DNA from: Nitrospinota bacterium
GTDB taxonomy: Bacteria; Nitrospinota; Nitrospinia; JACRGO01
Reading direction: 5' to 3'
Length of the DNA: 37,367 nt
Assembly: GCA_016212295.1 (NCBI GenBank)
Contig: JACRGO010000199.1
Span: 1 to 37,367 of the forward strand
A program made the translations under genes and the position numbers. This document shows, one piece after another, positions 200 to 13,814 of the stretch. The notes below the pieces were generated by a model. That model saw only the letters and a list, made by a program, of their open reading frames with translations, was not told where the DNA came from and did no database searches. Numbering within the stretch: the first letter of the stretch is position 1; every line of letters starts with the position of its first letter.

Positions 200-730
200 A
201 TGAGAAAGGCACTTCCTTTTTTTTTCCTTCTTTTCGTTGTCCTCTGCCATGCCTCCGTCTTTGCCGTGGAAACCGCTCCCCGCATATCCGACAGGGAGAT
301 AATAGAAAGCCTTGCGGAATTAAAGGCCGGGCAGAAGGCCCTTGGGCAGCGGTTAGACGACATGAATAATTCCGTCAACGGACGGTTTGACGATGTCAAC
401 AAACGGTTTGATGACATGAATAATTCCGTCAACAAACGGTTTGACGATGTCAATAAACGGTTTGATGATCTTCAGGAGTCAACCAATAAACGATTCGATG
501 ATATCAACGGACGGTTCGATATCCTCCAATGGATGTTCGGGCTTTTCATTACCGTTGCCCTTTCATTAATGGGGATAATGGGGCGGATACTCTGGAATCA
601 ACAGAAGAAACTAACCCAGATAGAAACCTCCCTTGAGGCGCAAAAGGAGGAGCTTTCATTTCTGAAATCCCTCATCGAGAAACTCCAGTCCCTCATTGAA
701 AAACTCCTCCCCCCGAGAGGGGTTTTGTAG
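200..730 (+). CDS. Small membrane-anchored coiled-coil protein with heptad repeats
   Basis: A 176-aa protein. Residues 1-22 look like a signal peptide or N-terminal anchor, ending near VFA. Then come several near-identical seven-residue units of the type NKRFDDV (roughly residues 55-105), predicted to form a coiled coil. One transmembrane helix (about 110-132) and a second, C-terminal coiled-coil segment ending LLPPRGVL follow. The overall plan resembles DUF1640/CCDC90-like proteins, but I assign no function. The gene at 23419-24030 is a close paralogue with the same N-terminal, membrane and C-terminal parts and a different number of heptads. The start is fixed by the signal-like N-terminus and by a promoter whose +1 coincides with the ATG. 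A GC-rich inverted repeat followed by TTTT overlaps the stop codon and could act as a weak terminator. Confidence 0.75.
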   Translation: MRKALPFFFLLFVVLCHASVFAVETAPRISDREIIESLAELKAGQKALGQRLDDMNNSVNGRFDDVNKRFDDMNNSVNKRFDDVNKRFDDLQESTNKRFDDINGRFDILQWMFGLFITVALSLMGIMGRILWNQQKKLTQIETSLEAQKEELSFLKSLIEKLQSLIEKLLPPRGVL

Positions 731-790: not shown

Positions 791-928
791 GGCCGGAAAG
801 GGGTCTGCTTTTGACTTAAGTTTCCGCTTGTCGCGGATTTGCAATCCGCGATGCTACACCTTCGGGATTTATAATCCCCGTATTTCAAATCCGGATGGAT
901 CGGCGTTACAGGTTGCAAACCTGTAACG
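791..928. repeat. Cluster of palindromic hairpin repeats
   Basis: Three palindromes in a row, each centred on a TTTGCAA, TTATAA or TTGCAAA-like core: CGCGGATTTGCAATCCGCG (about 832-850), an imperfect one at 863-880, and a 25-bp perfect palindrome at 904-928. The lead-in CTTTTGACTTAAGTTTCCGC is repeated at about 2434, again just before a palindrome of the same type. This is a dispersed structured repeat of unknown mobility. Confidence 0.7.
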
Positions 929-1020
929 AGCAGTAATATAAAGGCGGGCATCAGTTGTCAGGGAAGGGCAAAAGGCGAGGGACGGAAGGCGGAGGCAATT
1001 GACGATTTACAATTGTAAGT

Positions 1021-2207: not shown

Positions 2208-2385
2208 AGAACCAAAGGCTATGGAGGAAATTCATAAAATCAGGGAGAAAATTTACTCTGAGACTAATGGGATGACTATACATGAACTTATGGAATTTAT
2301 CAGCAAAGAGGCTGAATCCTTCAAGCTACGATTCAATCTTAAATCAAAAACTCCTAAAAGAAAAACTGATTTGGTTAGTATATAA
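2197..2385 (+). CDS. Small antitoxin-like partner of PIN toxin
   Basis: A 62-aa hydrophilic protein overlapping the end of the PIN gene by 11 nt. It has a strong ribosome-binding site (AGGAGGTGA) inside the toxin coding sequence. The segment KAMEEIHKIREKIY followed by a helical region resembles the short uncharacterised antitoxins found immediately downstream of this PIN subgroup. The tight overlap and small size support an antitoxin role by context. I see no recognisable DNA-binding fold, so autoregulation cannot be inferred. Confidence 0.65.
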   Translation: MTNEEPKAMEEIHKIREKIYSETNGMTIHELMEFISKEAESFKLRFNLKSKTPKRKTDLVSI

Positions 2386-2395
2386 TTTTTGCGCG

Positions 2396-2520
2396 AAAAA
2401 TTGGGGCTGCGCCTTAGGAAAGGGGTCAAGTCTGCTTTTGACTTAAGTTTCCGCTCGTTACAGATTTGTAATCTGTAACGCGGCTCTTCGGGATTTTCAA
2501 TCCCTGCCTGCCGCGCTCCG
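2396..2520. repeat. Family A repeat plus hairpins between TA modules
   Basis: A degenerate family A start (TTGGGGCTGCGCCTTAGG) is followed by the CTTTTGACTTAAGTTTCCGC block seen at about 807. A 25-bp perfect palindrome at 2456-2480 and a GGGATTTTCAATCCC palindrome at 2490-2504 follow. A GCCTGCC/GGCAGGC hairpin continues past 2520. Confidence 0.65.
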
Positions 2521-2630
2521 CTTGGCGCAGGCAGGCTTTAAACTTTAGCCACTTTAGGCACTCGCAATCTCGTTGATTTTTAAAGAAAACCTTTGAAATT
2601 CCGATACAGTTTTACAGGAGGTGAAGCAGC

Positions 2631-2879
2631 ATGAAAGATGAACGGTTACTTGAACGGATTGCCATTAATACCAAAATAATGGTTGGAAAACCTGTTATAC
2701 GGGGAACGCGACTGGCCGTGGAGTATATTTTGAATCTGCTCGCGCGTGGTGAAACAGTGGAAGAAATCATCAAGGAGTATAAAGGACTTACGTCTGAAGA
2801 TATTCAAGCTTGTATTCTATTCGCGGCCAAATCACTTGAGGACGCTGCCTTCATGCCGTTAATAGTGGAGACAGCGTAA
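2631..2879 (+). CDS. DUF433 antitoxin
   Basis: An 82-aa DUF433 protein. The hallmark GKPVIRGTRL occurs at about residues 19-28, followed by a helix-turn-helix-like stretch (GETVEEIIKEY...LTSEDIQACILFAA). DUF433 proteins commonly pair with DUF5615 PIN-like toxins as a VapBC-type module, and the remains of such a toxin start one base after this stop codon. The ribosome-binding site AGGAGGTGA is strong. The reading frame is complete, unlike that of the partner. The sequence TTGAAATTCCGATAC upstream (2593-2607) recurs just before rlmB. Confidence 0.8.
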   Translation: MKDERLLERIAINTKIMVGKPVIRGTRLAVEYILNLLARGETVEEIIKEYKGLTSEDIQACILFAAKSLEDAAFMPLIVETA

Positions 2880-3219
2880 ATGCGTTTTCTCGTGGATGAA
2901 TGCGCGGGTCCTTCTGTTGCCGAGTGGCTGCGAGGACAAAGGCATGAAGTATTCTCAGTGTATGGCGAAGCACGCGGCATGGATGATGATAACAAACGAT
3001 AAAGATTTTGGAAAGAAAATTTATCTGGAGCGGCATCCTCATCATGGCGTAATTCTCCTGCGACTTGAAGATGAACGGACTGTTATCAAGATTGAGACGC
3101 TCACACGATTACTTAGGAATTATTCTGAACAGTTGGCAGGACAGTTTGTAGTAGTGACCGAGTCAAAGGCACGATTTGCCGGTAATATCAAAAAAATGAA
3201 AAATGGGGCCGCGTCTTGA
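2880..3219 (+). pseudogene. DUF5615 PIN-like toxin, broken by internal deletion
   Basis: The gene opens at ATG 2880, abutting the DUF433 stop, with MRFLVDECAGPSVAEWL typical of DUF5615. The frame stops at TAA 3000 after 40 residues (GMDDDNKR). The rest of the family (ITNDKDFGKKIY, HHGVILLRL, QFVVVTES) continues in the +1 frame from about 2989 to the stop at 3219. From the usual family sequence about 13-15 codons are missing between GMDDD and ITNDKDFG. The frame change requires a deletion of 3n+2 nt, for example 41 or 44. The toxin is thus very likely inactive while its antitoxin is intact. The 3' end runs into a family A repeat that supplies the stop. Confidence 0.8.
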
Positions 3220-3304
3220 ATTGTGGATTGGCTCAAGCAAAAAGACCGCGGATTCCGCTCGTTACAGATTTGCAATCCTCCTAATGAAATTTGGGATCGC
3301 GGAA
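3199..3304 (+). repeat. Compound repeat, family A plus TCCGCTCGTTACAG block
   Basis: 3199-3251 matches 1021-1073, and the adjoining 3252-3304 matches 1399-1449 (ATTCCGCTCGTTACAGATTT onwards, including GCAATCCTCCTRATGAAAT). The two parts are separate at the first locus and fused here. Confidence 0.75.
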
Positions 3305-3411
3305 TGCGGATTGAAAGATAGTCATTGAGTCATTAAGCCATTGAGCGAAGAGACACTCAGGTTTAAAATCCGAAATCGAGAATTATAAAATACAACTTTC
3401 AGGAGACAGCT

Positions 3412-3648
3412 ATGACCATACAGCAGCAATTAATAAAGGAAATAGAGGGCTTGCCGCTCGAGGCACAAAAAAAGGTTTTAAAGCTAATGCATTTCGTAAA
3501 AGAAGAATTCTTCCCTCCGCAAGAGAAAAGGGCTATGGCGAAGGGTGCAAACGCCCTTGCCGACATCGATAAGTTTGCTATTGAAACCGGTATACCTGAC
3601 CTCTCGGTTCAGCATGACCATTACCTATACGGGGCTCCAAAGAGATGA
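3412..3648 (+). CDS. DUF2281-like antitoxin of PIN toxin
   Basis: A 78-aa protein starting TIQQQLIKEIEGLPLEAQKK, a pattern typical of short VapB-type antitoxins of the DUF2281 kind (LP..aQ..vL.fi.FlK). Its stop overlaps the toxin start in ATGA, so translation is probably coupled. AGGAG lies at a normal distance before ATG 3412. The C-terminal part (AETGIPDLS, HDHYLYG) is typical of antitoxins next to PIN proteins and probably wraps the toxin. This is the only one of the first three modules with an antitoxin-first order and two intact genes. Confidence 0.75.
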   Translation: MTIQQQLIKEIEGLPLEAQKKVLKLMHFVKEEFFPPQEKRAMAKGANALADIDKFAIETGIPDLSVQHDHYLYGAPKR

Positions 3649-4061
3649 AAAAGGCCGTTTTTGTGGATACCGCCGCATGGCTGGCTCTTATAAACAAATC
3701 AGACACCCTGCACAAAACTGCAAAAAAAATACGTAATAGCCTGTTAAACCAGAATGCCAAATTCATCATCACCGATTACATTATTGTCGAGATAGCCAAT
3801 TCCTTAAACCGTATTCCAGCCAGGGAATCCGCCATCCATCTTATAAACTCCATAATGGCATCCAGAAATATAGAAGTTGTGGTGGTTGATAAAGAGGTAT
3901 TCAGAGAGGCATGGGAACTGTATTCGAGTCGTACCGATAAGGAATGGAGCATGACCGACTGCACCACCTTTGTTATTATGAACCGCAGGCAAATAACAGA
4001 GGCATTCACATCCGACCGTCATTTTGAACAGGCGGGTTTTACTATACTTTTGAAAGAGTAG
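3645..4061 (+). CDS. PIN-domain toxin, VapC family
   Basis: A 138-aa classical VapC-like PIN ribonuclease. The expected catalytic acidic residues are D8 (FVDTAAW), E49 (IIVEIANSL), D105 (WSMTDCTTF) and D124 (FTSDRHF). Length and motif spacing are normal and the frame is intact. It overlaps the antitoxin gene by 4 nt (ATGA). Another family A repeat begins 15 nt after the stop codon. Confidence 0.85.
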   Translation: MKKAVFVDTAAWLALINKSDTLHKTAKKIRNSLLNQNAKFIITDYIIVEIANSLNRIPARESAIHLINSIMASRNIEVVVVDKEVFREAWELYSSRTDKEWSMTDCTTFVIMNRRQITEAFTSDRHFEQAGFTILLKE

Positions 4062-4484: not shown

Positions 4485-6761
4485 ATGTTTAATTTTCGTG
4501 AAAAAACCGTGTTTTTTTCAGTCTGCTTCGCAATAACCGTTTTCCCTGTCTTTTCTTCCTCTCTTTTCGCCTCGCCGGCCGTGAAATTCAACGGCGTGCC
4601 CGCGGAGGTCCTTTCCAGTTCAGCCACTGAAATACAGGCCAAGGTGCCGCTCGGCGCCACGACCGGACCTGTCATAGTGGAGACCGAAAACTCCGTTGTG
4701 TTCAGCGACACTGATTTCGAGATCAATGTCCGCCCCTCGCCTTACGGCGTTTCCGCCAGGGCGTCCGTCGGGAACGTCGAAATCTCCTGGCTTCCACCAA
4801 TCGCGGAATCGCTTCAAGGCTACAATGTCCACAGGAGCGCAAGCGCGCAGGGGCCGTTCAAGCAGATTGCCTCCAAAGTGTCGGACGCCTTTTATCTGGA
4901 TGAATCACCGGACCTCATCATCGGAAACACTTATTACTATAAGGTGAGCGCGGTTTATTCAGACAACAAGGAAAGCGATAAATCCTTGCCTGCCTCTACG
5001 GTGTTTGGGAACATAACCTTGTGGATTCCCAACGTGAACGGCGCCAGGGAAAGCGCCGCCGGCAAGGCGCTCAGCGGCGGCGGGGCGGCCTTGCAGGTCC
5101 CGGTTAACATCGAAAACGCCGACAAACTCACCATAGGCGAAGCGGCCATATATATAGATTATAACGCCGCCATCCTGCAGCCCCTGGACGTAGAGAAGAC
5201 CATCCTTTCCAGCGATTTTGAATGGGAGATGTCCACTCCAGTTGACGGGGTAGTGAAAATTTCATCGGCCAAGGCCGGAAACGAGCCGCTTCGCGGGCTG
5301 GGGACCCTCTTCAATGTTGTTTTCATGGTAATCGACGCGGCGGCGGAAGGCCAGACAGCGGAATTCAGATTTCATGGGCCAGGCCACGCCGACTCTCCAT
5401 CCTACATAAACTCCCCGGCCGGGGAAGCCATTCCCTTGAAACTGGGCGATGGGGCGATGCAGGTGCAGCTTGCCTTTCGCAAGGGGGACGTGAACGGGGA
5501 CACGAGTATTTATGCCGTTGACTCAAGCCTGGCGCTGAGTTACGCCATGGGGATACAGGAGCCTGGAAAAGGGCCGCTTTCCGGAGGGGACATTGACGGG
5601 GACAGCGTTATCATGACAAATGACGCCGGGCTTATCCTCTATCATATAGTGAATCAAATGTGGCCCAGCCTGGATGACATATCAGTGTTTAATAAAAACA
5701 GGACCTTGGATTTTGGAGGCAAGGAACTGAGGAATTCAAAATATCTTGAGGTCCCGGTTTACATAAGCAGCCTGAATGACGTTAATTATTCGACCTTCGG
5801 AATTGTGTTCCCTTATAAGGTCCTCAACCCGGTTGACTTCACGCTCGACCCTAAACTCAAGAAGAAATTTGACGCCAAGGCGGAATTCCGCAAGAAGGGC
5901 CTGGCGGAAATATCCCTTCTTTATAAGGAAAAAGGCCGGGCCGAGACTTCATCATTCCAGAAGACAAGGATAGGGGTTTTAAAGTTTGACGTATTGGCGG
6001 CGGGGGAATCCAAGGGGGAGATTTCCTTTTCCAGGATAAACCTGTATGACAGGTTTGGCCGCGATTTCGTCCGGTCCGATTTAAAGATGAAGATCAGCGC
6101 GTCAAAGGCGTCCTTCAGGGCCAAGGGGAAAGGAAAAAAGTCCATAGCGGATACGAACAGGACCGTCATGAAAAAATATTTAAGCGACGGCTATTCTGTT
6201 GTGGGCATAAAAGGCATTGCGCCGCAAAAGGGAAAGCCAGGGGACGTGGTCACCATAACCCTTATAGCTGAAGGGACGGTCGAGGCCGGCATGGCCAGCA
6301 TCATGTCCTCTAACTTTAACTTTGAAATCGACAAATATGAATACCCGAATTTTCCCGGCGAAGCGCCCACGGTCAACGTCTCCTGGCAGGACGCCATGTC
6401 CTTGTGCGAGGCCGCCGGGAAGAGGCTGTGTTCAAGGGACGAGTGGGCGGCCGCGTGCAAGGGAACCCGGAACTTTACCTATCCCTATGGAAATGCCTAT
6501 CAATCCACCAGTTGCAACGGCGCGGGATCGGCCTTCGGGACCATAGTCCCGGTGGGGGTCATGTCTGATTGCGCAAGCAGCTACGGGGCTTATGATTTGA
6601 GCGGAAACGTGTATGAATGGACCGGGTTAATCGACTCGGACGCGGCTTACGCTGGTGGAGATGCGGGCGACAGCGGCTCTGCGCTGAGCTGCTCCAACAT
6701 TATTCCCGACGCTGATTTTGCCTCGTCCGGGCCGACGATAGGGTTCCGTTGCTGCAGATAA
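4485..6761 (+). CDS. Secreted IPT/FN3/cohesin-like/dockerin/SUMF1 protein
   Basis: A 758-aa predicted exported protein. In order: a signal peptide (1-29), an IPT/TIG-like domain (about 31-80), a fibronectin type III domain (about 85-170), a cohesin-like beta domain (about 200-325), and a dockerin-like pair of calcium loops (GDVNGDTS at 334 and GDIDGDSV at 368). Next is a second cohesin-like domain (about 418-545) with the motif LYDRFGRDFVRSDLKMK. The start of another IPT domain (574-595) then runs directly into a SUMF1/FGE-sulfatase domain (about 612-758, ending GFRCCR). That SUMF1 domain lacks its usual N-terminal part, so the junction near 600 looks like a fusion or in-frame deletion. AAAGGAGG precedes ATG 4485. 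The role is probably cell-surface adhesion or scaffold; no catalytic activity is evident. The gene at 24437 shares the FN3 and second cohesin-like domains. Confidence 0.8.
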   Translation: MFNFREKTVFFSVCFAITVFPVFSSSLFASPAVKFNGVPAEVLSSSATEIQAKVPLGATTGPVIVETENSVVFSDTDFEINVRPSPYGVSARASVGNVEISWLPPIAESLQGYNVHRSASAQGPFKQIASKVSDAFYLDESPDLIIGNTYYYKVSAVYSDNKESDKSLPASTVFGNITLWIPNVNGARESAAGKALSGGGAALQVPVNIENADKLTIGEAAIYIDYNAAILQPLDVEKTILSSDFEWEMSTPVDGVVKISSAKAGNEPLRGLGTLFNVVFMVIDAAAEGQTAEFRFHGPGHADSPSYINSPAGEAIPLKLGDGAMQVQLAFRKGDVNGDTSIYAVDSSLALSYAMGIQEPGKGPLSGGDIDGDSVIMTNDAGLILYHIVNQMWPSLDDISVFNKNRTLDFGGKELRNSKYLEVPVYISSLNDVNYSTFGIVFPYKVLNPVDFTLDPKLKKKFDAKAEFRKKGLAEISLLYKEKGRAETSSFQKTRIGVLKFDVLAAGESKGEISFSRINLYDRFGRDFVRSDLKMKISASKASFRAKGKGKKSIADTNRTVMKKYLSDGYSVVGIKGIAPQKGKPGDVVTITLIAEGTVEAGMASIMSSNFNFEIDKYEYPNFPGEAPTVNVSWQDAMSLCEAAGKRLCSRDEWAAACKGTRNFTYPYGNAYQSTSCNGAGSAFGTIVPVGVMSDCASSYGAYDLSGNVYEWTGLIDSDAAYAGGDAGDSGSALSCSNIIPDADFASSGPTIGFRCCR

Positions 6762-6769
6762 TTCAAGGT

Positions 6770-7549
6770 TTATTTGGCATCCAGGACACATCTGAAGCCG
6801 TAAATTTCCAGCTTGGCTTCCGGGTAATTGCGGATTCTGTTAAAGATTCTTGCGCTTTCTATCGTATTGGCCCAACTCCCCCCTTTCAGAGTCCTCCATT
6901 TCCCGGAGGTTGGCCCTTGGGGATTGATATCCGGGGTATTCCAGTAATAGTCCTTATCATACCAGTCCAGGCACCATTCCCAAACATTGCCGGCCATATT
7001 GTATACGCCAAAAGGGCTTGCCCCGTCCTTGTGGTAATCCACCGGCGCTGTAAACTCGAAATTATCGGCTTTGCCGAATATGTTTAAATATGGCTCCAAT
7101 TTATTTCCCCATGGCCATTTACGGCCTTCTGTTCCTCCCCCAGCCGCCTTTTCCCATTCACTTTCTGTAGGGAGCCTCTTTCCCGCCCACTTTGCGTAAG
7201 CCGTGGCGTCGTGCCATGAAACCCCCACGACAGGTTGGTCTGGGCTGTTGAATCGTTTATCATTTATTGACCTTGGAGGTTCATGTCCCGTGGCATTCAC
7301 GAACTTCATGTATTCCTCGTTGCTGACTTCAAAGCGGTCGATGTAAAAGGAATCTATGTAAATTGGTTGGGTGCGGCGCTTGTTTTCAGGTCCATTTCCC
7401 TCCAACGTTCTCTCAAAATATCCAGAAGGGATTTTCACCATGCCTGCCGGCGTTTCTGTTTGGATGGTTCCTGTTTCCGCTATCAGGGTGAGTGGAAAGA
7501 AAAAAATAGATAGGAAAGAAAGAAGAGAAAAAAGTTTAATAAATCTCAT
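6770..7549 (-). CDS. SUMF1/FGE-sulfatase-domain exported protein
   Basis: A 259-aa protein from the internal ATG at 7549. The open frame extends to 7606 and another ATG lies at 7558; the shorter start gives a clean signal peptide (RFIKLFSLLSFLSIFFF). The mature part is a complete SUMF1 domain: GMVKIPSGYF, YIDRFEVSNEEY, VVGVSWHDA, GKRLPTESEWEKAA, YNMAGNVWEWCLDWY, LKGGSW and IYGFRC. Cysteines expected at the active site of true formylglycine-generating enzymes are absent, so this is more likely a ligand-binding or otherwise specialised C-type-lectin-like fold. It converges with the secreted protein at 4485, with only 8 bp between stops. A TATAAT lies about 37 nt upstream of the chosen start. 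Confidence 0.8.
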   Translation of the reverse strand: MRFIKLFSLLSFLSIFFFPLTLIAETGTIQTETPAGMVKIPSGYFERTLEGNGPENKRRTQPIYIDSFYIDRFEVSNEEYMKFVNATGHEPPRSINDKRFNSPDQPVVGVSWHDATAYAKWAGKRLPTESEWEKAAGGGTEGRKWPWGNKLEPYLNIFGKADNFEFTAPVDYHKDGASPFGVYNMAGNVWEWCLDWYDKDYYWNTPDINPQGPTSGKWRTLKGGSWANTIESARIFNRIRNYPEAKLEIYGFRCVLDAK

Positions 7550-7586
7550 AGTGTGCATGGCAGGGCCAAAAATCTCAATAAATAAA

Positions 7587-7592
7587 ATTATA
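7587..7592 (-). promoter_or_regulatory. -10 element upstream of SUMF1 gene
   Basis: On the minus strand TATAAT lies 37 nt upstream of ATG 7549. No good -35 box is seen at 16-18 nt, so the assignment is tentative. Confidence 0.3.
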
Positions 7593-7611
7593 CAGGGAAC
7601 AAACAAGGAAA

Positions 7612-12150: not shown

Positions 12151-12447
12151 CTACAGCAATTTGACCAGGGCCGCCATGATGGCTATGGAGGCGGCCATCA
12201 TGCCGCCCAAGCGGAGGGTGAGATCGTATTTCAGCCGGATTTCCAGTTCCTGCATGTCGCGCTTTAGGCCTGTTTCCAGTTCCTTTATATCGCGCTGTAT
12301 TGCCGCGATATCCAGCTTGGTGGCCAGATTCCCTTCCAGCAGGCTGGTTTGGGCGGAGGATAGGACCTCAGCCTGTTTTTCAGTAAAACCGGCCTCCTGG
12401 AGTTTTTTGACAAAAATGTGGGTATCAAAGATGATGGCGTTTCCCAT
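12151..12447 (-). CDS. DUF1640-like coiled-coil membrane protein
   Basis: A 98-aa protein with the DUF1640 (CCDC90-like) plan: IIFDTHIFVKKLQEAGFTEK at the N-terminus, a coiled coil (KLDIAAIQRDIKELETGLKR) and one C-terminal transmembrane helix (about 78-98). Bacterial members have no established function. The start ATG 12447 lacks a Shine-Dalgarno sequence but sits exactly six nucleotides after a -10 box. The same arrangement occurs at the genes starting at 200, 14567 and 24030. It diverges from the small-RNA promoter at 12508. Confidence 0.8.
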   Translation of the reverse strand: MGNAIIFDTHIFVKKLQEAGFTEKQAEVLSSAQTSLLEGNLATKLDIAAIQRDIKELETGLKRDMQELEIRLKYDLTLRLGGMMAASIAIMAALVKLL

Positions 12448-12453
12448 GGGAAC

Positions 12454-12482
12454 AATGTAGCACGACGGATAGGGGACTTCAA
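12454..12482 (-). promoter_or_regulatory. Promoter of predicted leaderless DUF1640 mRNA
   Basis: Minus strand: TTGAAG (12482-12477), a 17-nt spacer, TACATT (12459-12454), six nucleotides, then ATG at 12447. The predicted +1 is the A of the start codon. Confidence 0.65.
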
Positions 12483-12507: not shown

Positions 12508-12536
12508 TTGACAATCAAATTGTAGTTTTGTAATAT
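12508..12536 (+). promoter_or_regulatory. Consensus promoter of a small transcript
   Basis: TTGACA (12508-12513), a 17-nt spacer and TAATAT (12531-12536). Predicted transcription starts at about 12543. It is followed 130-170 nt later by a strong intrinsic terminator, with no large gene between. Confidence 0.65.
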
Positions 12537-12543
12537 GCGCAGC

Positions 12544-12712
12544 ATGTTTATATCTGCTCCCATTTTTTGCTCCACTGATATGCTTATTTCCTGGGCCCCC
12601 CCTTCAACCAACCAACATCTTCCTCTTCTTTTTTATAATTTTTTTTCGAGGCTTGAAAAATTTCAAGGCCCGCTCAAAAGGCTGTTATAGCCTGAAGAGC
12701 GGGCTTTTTTTT
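12544..12712 (+). ncRNA. Candidate small RNA (or 47-aa leaderless ORF)
   Basis: A consensus promoter and an intrinsic terminator frame a transcript of about 170 nt. It is pyrimidine-rich, with unpaired-looking CTTCCTCTTC and GGGCCCCCC stretches; CTTCCTCTTC could pair with Shine-Dalgarno-like sequences. An ATG lies at 12544, close to the predicted +1, and opens 47 codons to a TAG inside the terminator hairpin. That peptide (MFISAPIFCSTDM...) resembles nothing I know and ends in the hairpin, so a non-coding RNA is favoured. I do not recognise it as 6S RNA, SRP RNA or tmRNA. Confidence 0.45.
12668..12712 (+). terminator. Intrinsic terminator
   Basis: GCCCGCTC (12668-12675) pairs perfectly with GAGCGGGC (12697-12704). 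A nested GGCT/AGCC stem lies inside, and eight T residues follow (12705-12712). It ends the candidate small RNA; no other plus-strand gene lies closely upstream. Confidence 0.85.
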
Positions 12713-12860
12713 GTCTTTTTTGCTCACACGAAGGCACAAAGGCACAGAGGGGCGAAAGGCTAAGGGCGAAGGGCAGGATGAAACAGTATAACTGCCCCCT
12801 TTGAATTATCACGATTCTTTGTGTCTTAGTGGCTAAAAATAAAAAGAAAGGAGAAACAGC

Positions 12861-13814
12861 ATGAAAAAAAGCATTTGGAAAGTATTGATTCTCACGCTTA
12901 GTTTTGGGCTTTTTGCGTCCGCCCTTGTTCCATGTTCCGCCCTTGCCGCTGAGACCGGGACACTTGTGCTTACCACGCAGGACACATCTAAACAGCAGGT
13001 AGCCGCTTCAATCTCCGTGGATGGCGCGCTTAAGGGGACCGGGAAGGTGACCGTGGTGAAGATTACGGCAGGGACACATGAGGTAAAATTCGGAGATTTG
13101 GCTGGATATTCCATTGTGTCTCCAAGAAGTGGAAAGAAAAATGTCACGGTAAAGGCCGGAAAAAAAACCTCAGTGGCGGCGACTTATAAGAAATCCTCTT
13201 CAGGCGGCGGGGTAGCCGGTCCGCAGGTAACCGACATTGACGGCAATGTATACAATTCGGTAGTAATAGGCGCCCAGACATGGATGAAAGAGAATCTTAA
13301 GGTAACCAGATACCGTAACGGCGACGCCATAGGCACAACCACACCGGCAGACCTTCAGGTTTCAGCCTGGACCTCGCTGAAATACCAGTGGGCATATAAT
13401 GGTAACGAAAGCAATGCGGCTGTCTATGGCCGGTTATATACCGGGTATGCCGCGGCCGACAGCAGAGGCGTATGCCCTGCGGGATGGCATTTGCCTACCG
13501 ATGCCGAATGGACAACGCTTACGGATTATCTGGGAGGCAGCAGCGTAGCCGGTGGTAAGATGAAAGAAAGCAGCGGTTTCACAGCGCTTCCGGGTGGTTG
13601 GCGTAACGGCAGAGGTTCGTACCGCCACGGTAGATTGGTCGATACATTCGACGCCATCGGCCGGTACGGTGAGTGGTGGTCGGCTACGGAGTACCACACG
13701 ACGAACGCGTGGACCCGTATGCTGTACTACGATAGCTACTACGATTACAACGATGTGCACCGTGAGTCTCACGGTAAAAGCATCGGTTTTAGCGTTCGCT
13801 GTGTCGGGGATTGA
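12861..13814 (+). CDS. Secreted FISUMP-domain protein
   Basis: A 317-aa protein. A signal peptide (about 1-30, ending ALAAE) is followed by a PEGA-like beta domain (about 33-112) and a Ser/Gly linker. The FISUMP (Fibrobacter succinogenes major paralogous) domain occupies about 122-317: DIDGNVYNSVVIGAQTWMKE, CPAGWHLPTDAEWTTL, LPGGWRNGRG, EWWSATEY and GFSVRCVGD. The fold is C-type-lectin-like and surface binding is plausible. The last 60 codons are dominated by NNC and NNT codons (Tyr, Asp, His, Ser, Asn), as in targets of diversity-generating retroelements, but no reverse transcriptase or template repeat is in this window. The ribosome-binding site AAAGGAG is strong. A relic of the same 3' end lies at 1151-1237. 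Confidence 0.85.
   Translation: MKKSIWKVLILTLSFGLFASALVPCSALAAETGTLVLTTQDTSKQQVAASISVDGALKGTGKVTVVKITAGTHEVKFGDLAGYSIVSPRSGKKNVTVKAGKKTSVAATYKKSSSGGGVAGPQVTDIDGNVYNSVVIGAQTWMKENLKVTRYRNGDAIGTTTPADLQVSAWTSLKYQWAYNGNESNAAVYGRLYTGYAAADSRGVCPAGWHLPTDAEWTTLTDYLGGSSVAGGKMKESSGFTALPGGWRNGRGSYRHGRLVDTFDAIGRYGEWWSATEYHTTNAWTRMLYYDSYYDYNDVHRESHGKSIGFSVRCVGD

What the first reader, a model, noticed from the sequence alone, without database searches (positions are those of the whole stretch)
12508..12712. Promoter-to-terminator small transcript with no large gene
TTGACA-N17-TAATAT is followed at about 170 nt by a strong intrinsic terminator (8-bp GC stem plus T8). The interior is pyrimidine-rich with anti-Shine-Dalgarno-like CTTCCTCTTC. 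A 47-codon ORF begins at the predicted +1 but ends in the terminator stem. It diverges from the leaderless DUF1640 gene. I recognise no known RNA family.
Basis: partly seen in the sequence, partly recalled or inferred. Interest (0 to 1): 0.65.

Follow-up and report, generated by a model that had tools for sequence, protein, structure and literature searches.

The report
Repeat-bearing attenuator leader of surface genes
The "small transcript" is one of about eleven copies, in this one bacterial genome, of a promoter, a short leader and a transcription stop signal placed just before genes for secreted proteins; several copies carry four-base repeats whose number could randomly switch those genes on or off.

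Summary
Promoter, ~125-nt G-poor leader and nested-hairpin terminator (12508-12712) recur about 11 times in this genome. They were not found in the one same-genus genome, in 75 other genomes of the class, or in Rfam. The -35 box is identical in 10 of 10 promoter-bearing copies, while upstream flanks have diverged. The outer terminator stem is 100% paired, with compensatory changes. Seven copies lie 16-160 nt upstream, same strand, of secreted-protein genes; an eighth is fused to a remnant. Identified C-terminal domains are Fib_succ_major, Lcl_C/DUF1566 and FGE-sulfatase. In one copy only 16 nt separate terminator and gene. Six leaders hold tetranucleotide tracts (up to 25 x CCAA, 11 x TCAA). 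Upstream ATGs keep one frame with a conserved leader motif. In silico, changing repeat number moves the leader ORF's stop from before the hairpin, to inside it, to past it. This is the architecture of the Streptococcus gallolyticus pil1 phase-variable attenuator. Cis attenuation is likely (~0.8); repeat-driven, translation-coupled switching is plausible (~0.5) and untested.

The parts
12508..12536 (+). Promoter of the leader: TTGACA (12508-12513), 17-nt spacer, TAATAT (12531-12536)
   Evidence: -35 hexamer identical in 10/10 promoter-bearing copies, -10 67% pairwise identity, 40 nt upstream only 33%;
12543..12712 (+). Predicted leader RNA, about 170 nt, G-poor and pyrimidine-rich
   Evidence: eleven related copies in the genome; interior 10% G, 69% pyrimidine
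12544..12690 (+). Candidate leader ORF, ATG at predicted +1, stop TAG in the terminator hairpin (48 codons)
   Evidence: translation inferred, not shown
12605..12616 (+). Short tetranucleotide tract CAACCAACCAAC, the site where other copies carry (CCAA)25, (TCAA)11, (CCTA)4
12668..12712 (+). Intrinsic terminator: nested hairpin 12668-12704 plus T8
   Evidence: -24.6 kcal/mol; outer stem 100% paired in nine copies with 4 of 8 pairs changed on both sides
12861..13814 (+). Probable regulated gene: secreted 317-aa protein with Fib_succ_major domain (PF09603)
   Evidence: no good promoter between 12713 and 12860
12454..12482 (-). Divergent promoter of the DUF1640/CCDC90-like gene (12151-12447); neighbour, not part of the leader
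   Evidence: TTGAAG-N17-TACATT box, 6 nt before ATG, shared by paralogues

Best explanation
It is one member of a lineage-specific, roughly 11-copy family of transcription-attenuator leaders in front of genes for secreted proteins, which where complete carry C-type-lectin-like C-terminal domains. Most likely readthrough depends on translation of a leader ORF through a tetranucleotide repeat. Depending on repeat number the ORF ends about 26-41 nt before the hairpin (terminator forms, gene low), inside the hairpin, or beyond it (ribosome blocks the hairpin, gene high). Slippage of the repeats would switch each surface gene at random. Shown here: the family, the conserved promoter and terminator, the gene association, the repeats and the three-phase arithmetic. 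Inferred: termination efficiency, translation of the leader, and repeat switching.
For: Eleven copies of the whole unit. Promoter conserved while upstream flank is not. Compensatory changes in the outer stem. Seven copies 16-160 nt upstream of same-strand secreted-protein genes, an eighth fused to a remnant; 16-nt gap in C112. A paralogous gene (C60) has a homologous 5' UTR without the leader. Tetranucleotide runs beyond chance in six leaders; all YCAA tracts of 5 or more units in the assembly lie in two of the leaders. ATGs in phase with a conserved motif in all six copies that have it. One repeat unit more or less cycles the stop through before / inside / beyond the hairpin. Experimentally proven precedent with this layout: PMC3894217.
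Against: No Shine-Dalgarno before most leader ATGs (AGGGGG in C81 only); the window's ATG would be leaderless. Open-frame length is not significant in any single copy. C9, C32 and C168 have no workable version, C9 and C32 have no secreted gene nearby, and the window's own repeat is only 12 nt. Other secreted Fib_succ_major genes lack the leader. One MAG only; no expression or population data.
Confidence: 0.5

Rival explanations
1. Cis attenuator, but readthrough is controlled by something other than leader translation: Rho loading on the C-rich, G-poor leader, a specialised NusG-type factor, or a protein that binds the CCAA/TCAA tract. Repeats tune spacing or binding.
For: Leaders are G-poor, pyrimidine-rich and weakly folded; start signals for translation are weak; same gene association.
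Against: ATG frame is kept with the leader motif; stop codon at the same place in the hairpin in nine copies. No candidate factor was sought.
Confidence: 0.22
2. Unregulated or decaying dispersed unit: promoter and leaky terminator copied together with secreted-protein genes by duplication, with no switching role.
For: Confined to one genome; degenerate copies C32 and C168; related 5' UTRs among copies; inner hairpin inverted in C108.
Against: Promoter and outer stem are kept under divergence, and the three kinds of gene downstream are not all close paralogues.
Confidence: 0.16
3. Trans-acting small RNA, about 170 nt, multi-copy, whose C-rich unstructured region pairs with other mRNAs.
For: Promoter-to-terminator unit with unpaired CU-rich interior; C9 and C109 have no secreted gene shown next to them.
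Against: Eight of eleven copies precede, or are fused to, secreted-protein genes on the same strand; interior poorly conserved and expanded by repeats. A by-product role in trans is not excluded.
Confidence: 0.1
4. A functional small protein of 48 aa encoded from ATG 12544.
For: ATG at +1; comparable frames in C112 and C133.
Against: No amino-acid conservation across copies; frames disrupted by tetranucleotide and other indels; no Pfam match.
Confidence: 0.02

Closest known systems
Streptococcus gallolyticus pil1/pil3 phase-variable attenuator (PMC3894217)
   Same: Promoter, leader ORF containing short tandem repeats, premature stem-loop terminator, surface-protein gene downstream; repeat number sets whether the ORF stops before, at/in or beyond the hairpin.
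   Different: Tetranucleotide CCAA/TCAA/CCTA instead of GCAGA; about 11 dispersed copies instead of two loci; weak or no Shine-Dalgarno; no sequence relation; targets are secreted C-type-lectin-like proteins; no experimental proof here.
Moraxella catarrhalis uspA2 5'-UTR AGAT repeats (Attia and Hansen 2006, as cited in PMC4679880)
   Same: Tetranucleotide repeat of variable number in the 5' untranslated region of a surface-protein gene.
   Different: No premature terminator or leader ORF is described for it in the passage read; here both are present.
Ribosome-mediated amino-acid operon attenuators (trp/his/Phe leader type)
   Same: Leader ORF next to an intrinsic terminator.
   Different: No run of regulatory codons and no alternative antiterminator pairing; Rfam leader hits are far below their gathering scores.
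Diversity-generating retroelement (DGR) target proteins (PMC4159848)
   Same: The downstream genes carry domain families known among DGR variable proteins: Fib_succ_major, DUF1566, FGE-sulfatase.
   Different: The only RVT_1 hit in this assembly is a group II intron-type ORF; no DGR found.

Membership tests
SSR leader-peptide attenuator (pil1 type) | Premature intrinsic terminator between promoter and surface-protein gene | tested here: met
SSR leader-peptide attenuator (pil1 type) | Short tandem repeats inside the leader ORF, unit not a multiple of three | tested here: met
   tetranucleotide tracts in six leaders, long in C109 and C125, only 12 nt in the window
SSR leader-peptide attenuator (pil1 type) | Repeat number moves the leader stop codon before / into / beyond the hairpin | tested here: met
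   in-silico change of repeat number, (C112 lacks the beyond state)
SSR leader-peptide attenuator (pil1 type) | Leader ORF with translation start signals | tested here: inconclusive
   ATG in phase with the motif, but no Shine-Dalgarno in most copies and the ATG is lost or shifted in some
SSR leader-peptide attenuator (pil1 type) | Repeat number varies in the population and sets expression | not testable with these tools
   needs reads, isolates or reporters
Known Rfam RNA family | Score at or above the gathering threshold | tested here: not met
   window 0 hits; other copies' loci none on the element
Stand-alone trans-acting sRNA | Independent transcription unit not linked to a downstream gene | tested here: not met
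   8 of 11 copies precede, or are fused to, secreted-protein genes; action in trans itself was not testable
Small functional protein | Conserved amino-acid sequence in one frame | tested here: not met

The most novel reading that the evidence does not exclude
An uncultured bacterium runs a multi-locus, repeat-driven switch: about eleven dispersed attenuator leaders with variable tetranucleotide tracts independently and reversibly turn on secreted proteins with C-type-lectin-like domains by letting ribosomes run into, or stop short of, a terminator. It would have arisen independently of the S. gallolyticus pil1 system.
Probability: 0.4. Interest if true: 0.78.

Novelty: new variant of a known kind. 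Interest (0 to 1): 0.62.

Why it matters
In the papers searched, phase variation through repeat-length change in a leader-peptide attenuator turned up only for two pilus loci of one Streptococcus. A many-copy version in an unrelated, uncultured lineage would mean that the mechanism arose more than once and can serve as a regulon-wide switch. It would also show that surface proteins with domains typical of diversity-generating retroelement targets can be varied by switching rather than by mutation. The prediction is directly testable from metagenome reads across the repeat tracts.

Tried and rejected
Known RNA family: rejected. Functional small protein: rejected, no peptide conservation. Simple shared terminator or dispersed hairpin: the first BLAST saw only about 60 nt in two other places, but covariance models found whole promoter-leader-terminator copies. 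DGR accessory RNA: the only reverse transcriptase found is group II intron-like. Riboswitch-type alternative fold: the leader has no more than a 5-nt complement to the 5' terminator arm. Synteny with the sister species: its contig ends at DUF6178. Homologues elsewhere: none in 76 other genomes of the class, in exact-pattern scans of genome contigs and viral contigs, or in 43 loci with Fib_succ_major relatives (best E 0.5). C108 was first read on the wrong strand in model R2; corrected in R3. ORF openness alone as evidence of coding: not significant.

Full report
What was claimed and what is there. The ORF from the predicted +1 (ATG 12544) is 48 codons and stops at TAG 12688-12690 inside the hairpin. 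Consensus scans alone would not make this remarkable, and Rfam has nothing.

A family in one genome. BLAST of the region against its own genome found only the terminator in two more places, at 91-92% identity. A covariance model of those three copies found more, and a wider model brought the total to eleven: C156 (the window), C112, C133, C81, C109, C9, C108, C147, C125, C32 and C168. Aligned, they show the same unit: TTGACA, a TA..AT -10 box, a leader with a GAYATG-ATTATTTCC-like motif, a pyrimidine-rich stretch TCTCTTCCTGACTCTTTCTTTTG, and a nested hairpin with a T run. C32 lacks a recognisable promoter; C168 has lost most of the leader. Apart from C32, the -35 hexamer is identical in all copies while the 40 nt upstream are at 33% identity, so the unit begins at the promoter. 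The outer stem pairs in every one of nine aligned copies, with four of eight base pairs changed on both sides somewhere. Two hairpin types (GCCCGCTC.. and GCCCGTTT..) and one variant (GTCCGCCC..) keep the stem; in C108 the inner segment appears inverted. The family was not found in the single same-genus genome, in the other 75 genomes of the class that are held (strict filters), or in exact-pattern scans of two public collections.

Association with secreted-protein genes. Downstream, on the same strand and 16-160 nt away, lie signal-peptide-like proteins in the window, C112, C133, C81, C108, C147 and C125; C168 is fused to a Fib_succ_major gene remnant. Signal peptides were judged by eye. Their C-terminal domains, where the contig does not cut them, are Fib_succ_major (window; C133, whose gene is frameshifted), Lcl_C/DUF1566 (C112) and FGE-sulfatase (C147). 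These are families known among variable proteins of diversity-generating retroelements (PMC4159848), though no such element was found here. C109 runs into a contig end, and C9 and C32 have no such gene close by. In C112 only 16 nt separate the T run from the start codon, so that gene must be read through the terminator. The gaps of other copies contain no good promoter; the best, in C133, matches 9 of 12. Another Fib_succ_major gene, on C60, has a TTGACA promoter and a recognisably homologous 5' UTR but no leader or terminator, so the unit is optional and acts in cis if it acts.

The leader. It is G-poor (5-17% G) and mostly weakly structured, and it cannot make an extended alternative pairing with the 5' terminator arm (no more than 5 nt). 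This argues against a riboswitch-like or trp-like fold. Six of eleven leaders contain tetranucleotide-periodic runs longer than shuffles give: 12 nt in the window, 13 in C133, 17 in C81, 12 in C108, 47 in C125 and 103 in C109. In the whole assembly, tracts of five or more YCAA units occur only in the C109 and C125 leaders. Other repeat units were not counted genome-wide.

Is it translated? Peptide sequence is not conserved, and open-frame length is not significant in any copy. However, in the six copies with the TTATTTCC motif, every ATG in the predicted RNA upstream of it is in the same frame with it, at first-ATG distances 6, 21, 21, 30 and 39 nt. With three independent length differences this has a chance of roughly 1 in 27 (my estimate), so it is suggestive only. 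Downstream of the repeats, one frame usually stops at a conserved TGA before the hairpin, one stops inside the hairpin (TAG, TGA or TAA at the same place in nine copies), and one reads past it. Adding or removing one repeat unit in silico cycles the leader ORF through these three outcomes in the window, C109, C125, C133 and C81. As assembled, the window, C112 and C133 stop in the hairpin; C109, C147 and C168 read past it (C147 continuously into its protein); C81, C108 and C125 stop before it. A Shine-Dalgarno-like sequence is seen only in C81; in the window the ATG would be leaderless, as the divergent DUF1640 gene also appears to be.

Comparison. This layout is that of the pil1 and pil3 loci of Streptococcus gallolyticus, where GCAGA repeat number sets leader-peptide length and thereby ribosome-mediated opening of a premature terminator; that was shown by mutants, qRT-PCR and flow cytometry (PMC3894217). 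It was the only such primary paper that my searches returned. The present units differ in repeat unit, copy number, start signals and targets. It works like that system on paper; membership by mechanism is plausible but unproven, because the features that need reads or experiments could not be tested.

Verdict. The finding is real and more interesting than a single orphan sRNA: a lineage-specific family of attenuator leaders. Cis attenuation is likely (about 0.8); the repeat-driven, translation-coupled switch is about an even bet. Limits: one genome assembly of 237 contigs, several copies at contig ends, repeat counts as assembled, organism not named by the tools.

Noticed in passing
window 12151-12482 (-) and paralogues L016, L019, L022, L028: DUF1640/CCDC90-like genes form a multi-copy family here (13 matches in the genome); several share a TTGAAC-N17-TACATT promoter about 6 nt before the ATG, i.e. 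apparently leaderless mRNAs.
   Followed up: partly
window 12722-12752 and 12817-12840; also L002 and L055 (C60): Dispersed CACGAAGGCACAAAGGCAC / CTTTGTGTCTTAGTGGC inverted pair in the 5' UTR of Fib_succ_major genes and elsewhere in the genome.
   Followed up: no
L106 (C108) terminator, 876-935 (-): The inner part of the terminator hairpin is inverted relative to the other copies, as if flipped between the outer arms.
   Followed up: no
L104 (C147), leader from 24703 down to 24438 (-) and into the gene: The leader ATG frame is open through the terminator and continuous with the downstream FGE-sulfatase-domain protein.
   Followed up: partly
L053 (C142) 2463-3839 (+): Only RVT_1 reverse transcriptase found in the genome; looks like a group II intron ORF.
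   Followed up: partly
L108 (C9) 2331-2375 (-): Borderline Acido-Lenti-1 RNA hit (37.2 bits, threshold 37) just downstream of the C9 terminator.
   Followed up: no
window 4485-6761 (+) and 6770-7606 (-): Two more FGE-sulfatase-domain proteins in the window, one with a cohesin domain; neither has the leader.
   Followed up: partly
window 200-730 (+) and L010 158-613 (+): Similar secreted coiled-coil proteins with varying numbers of an internal KRFDDMNNSVN-type repeat (54-nt unit in the window).
   Followed up: no
L019, L030, L031 upstream regions: Intergenic stretches rich in TTGGTT/AACCAA-type near-repeats upstream of DUF1640 paralogues.
   Followed up: no
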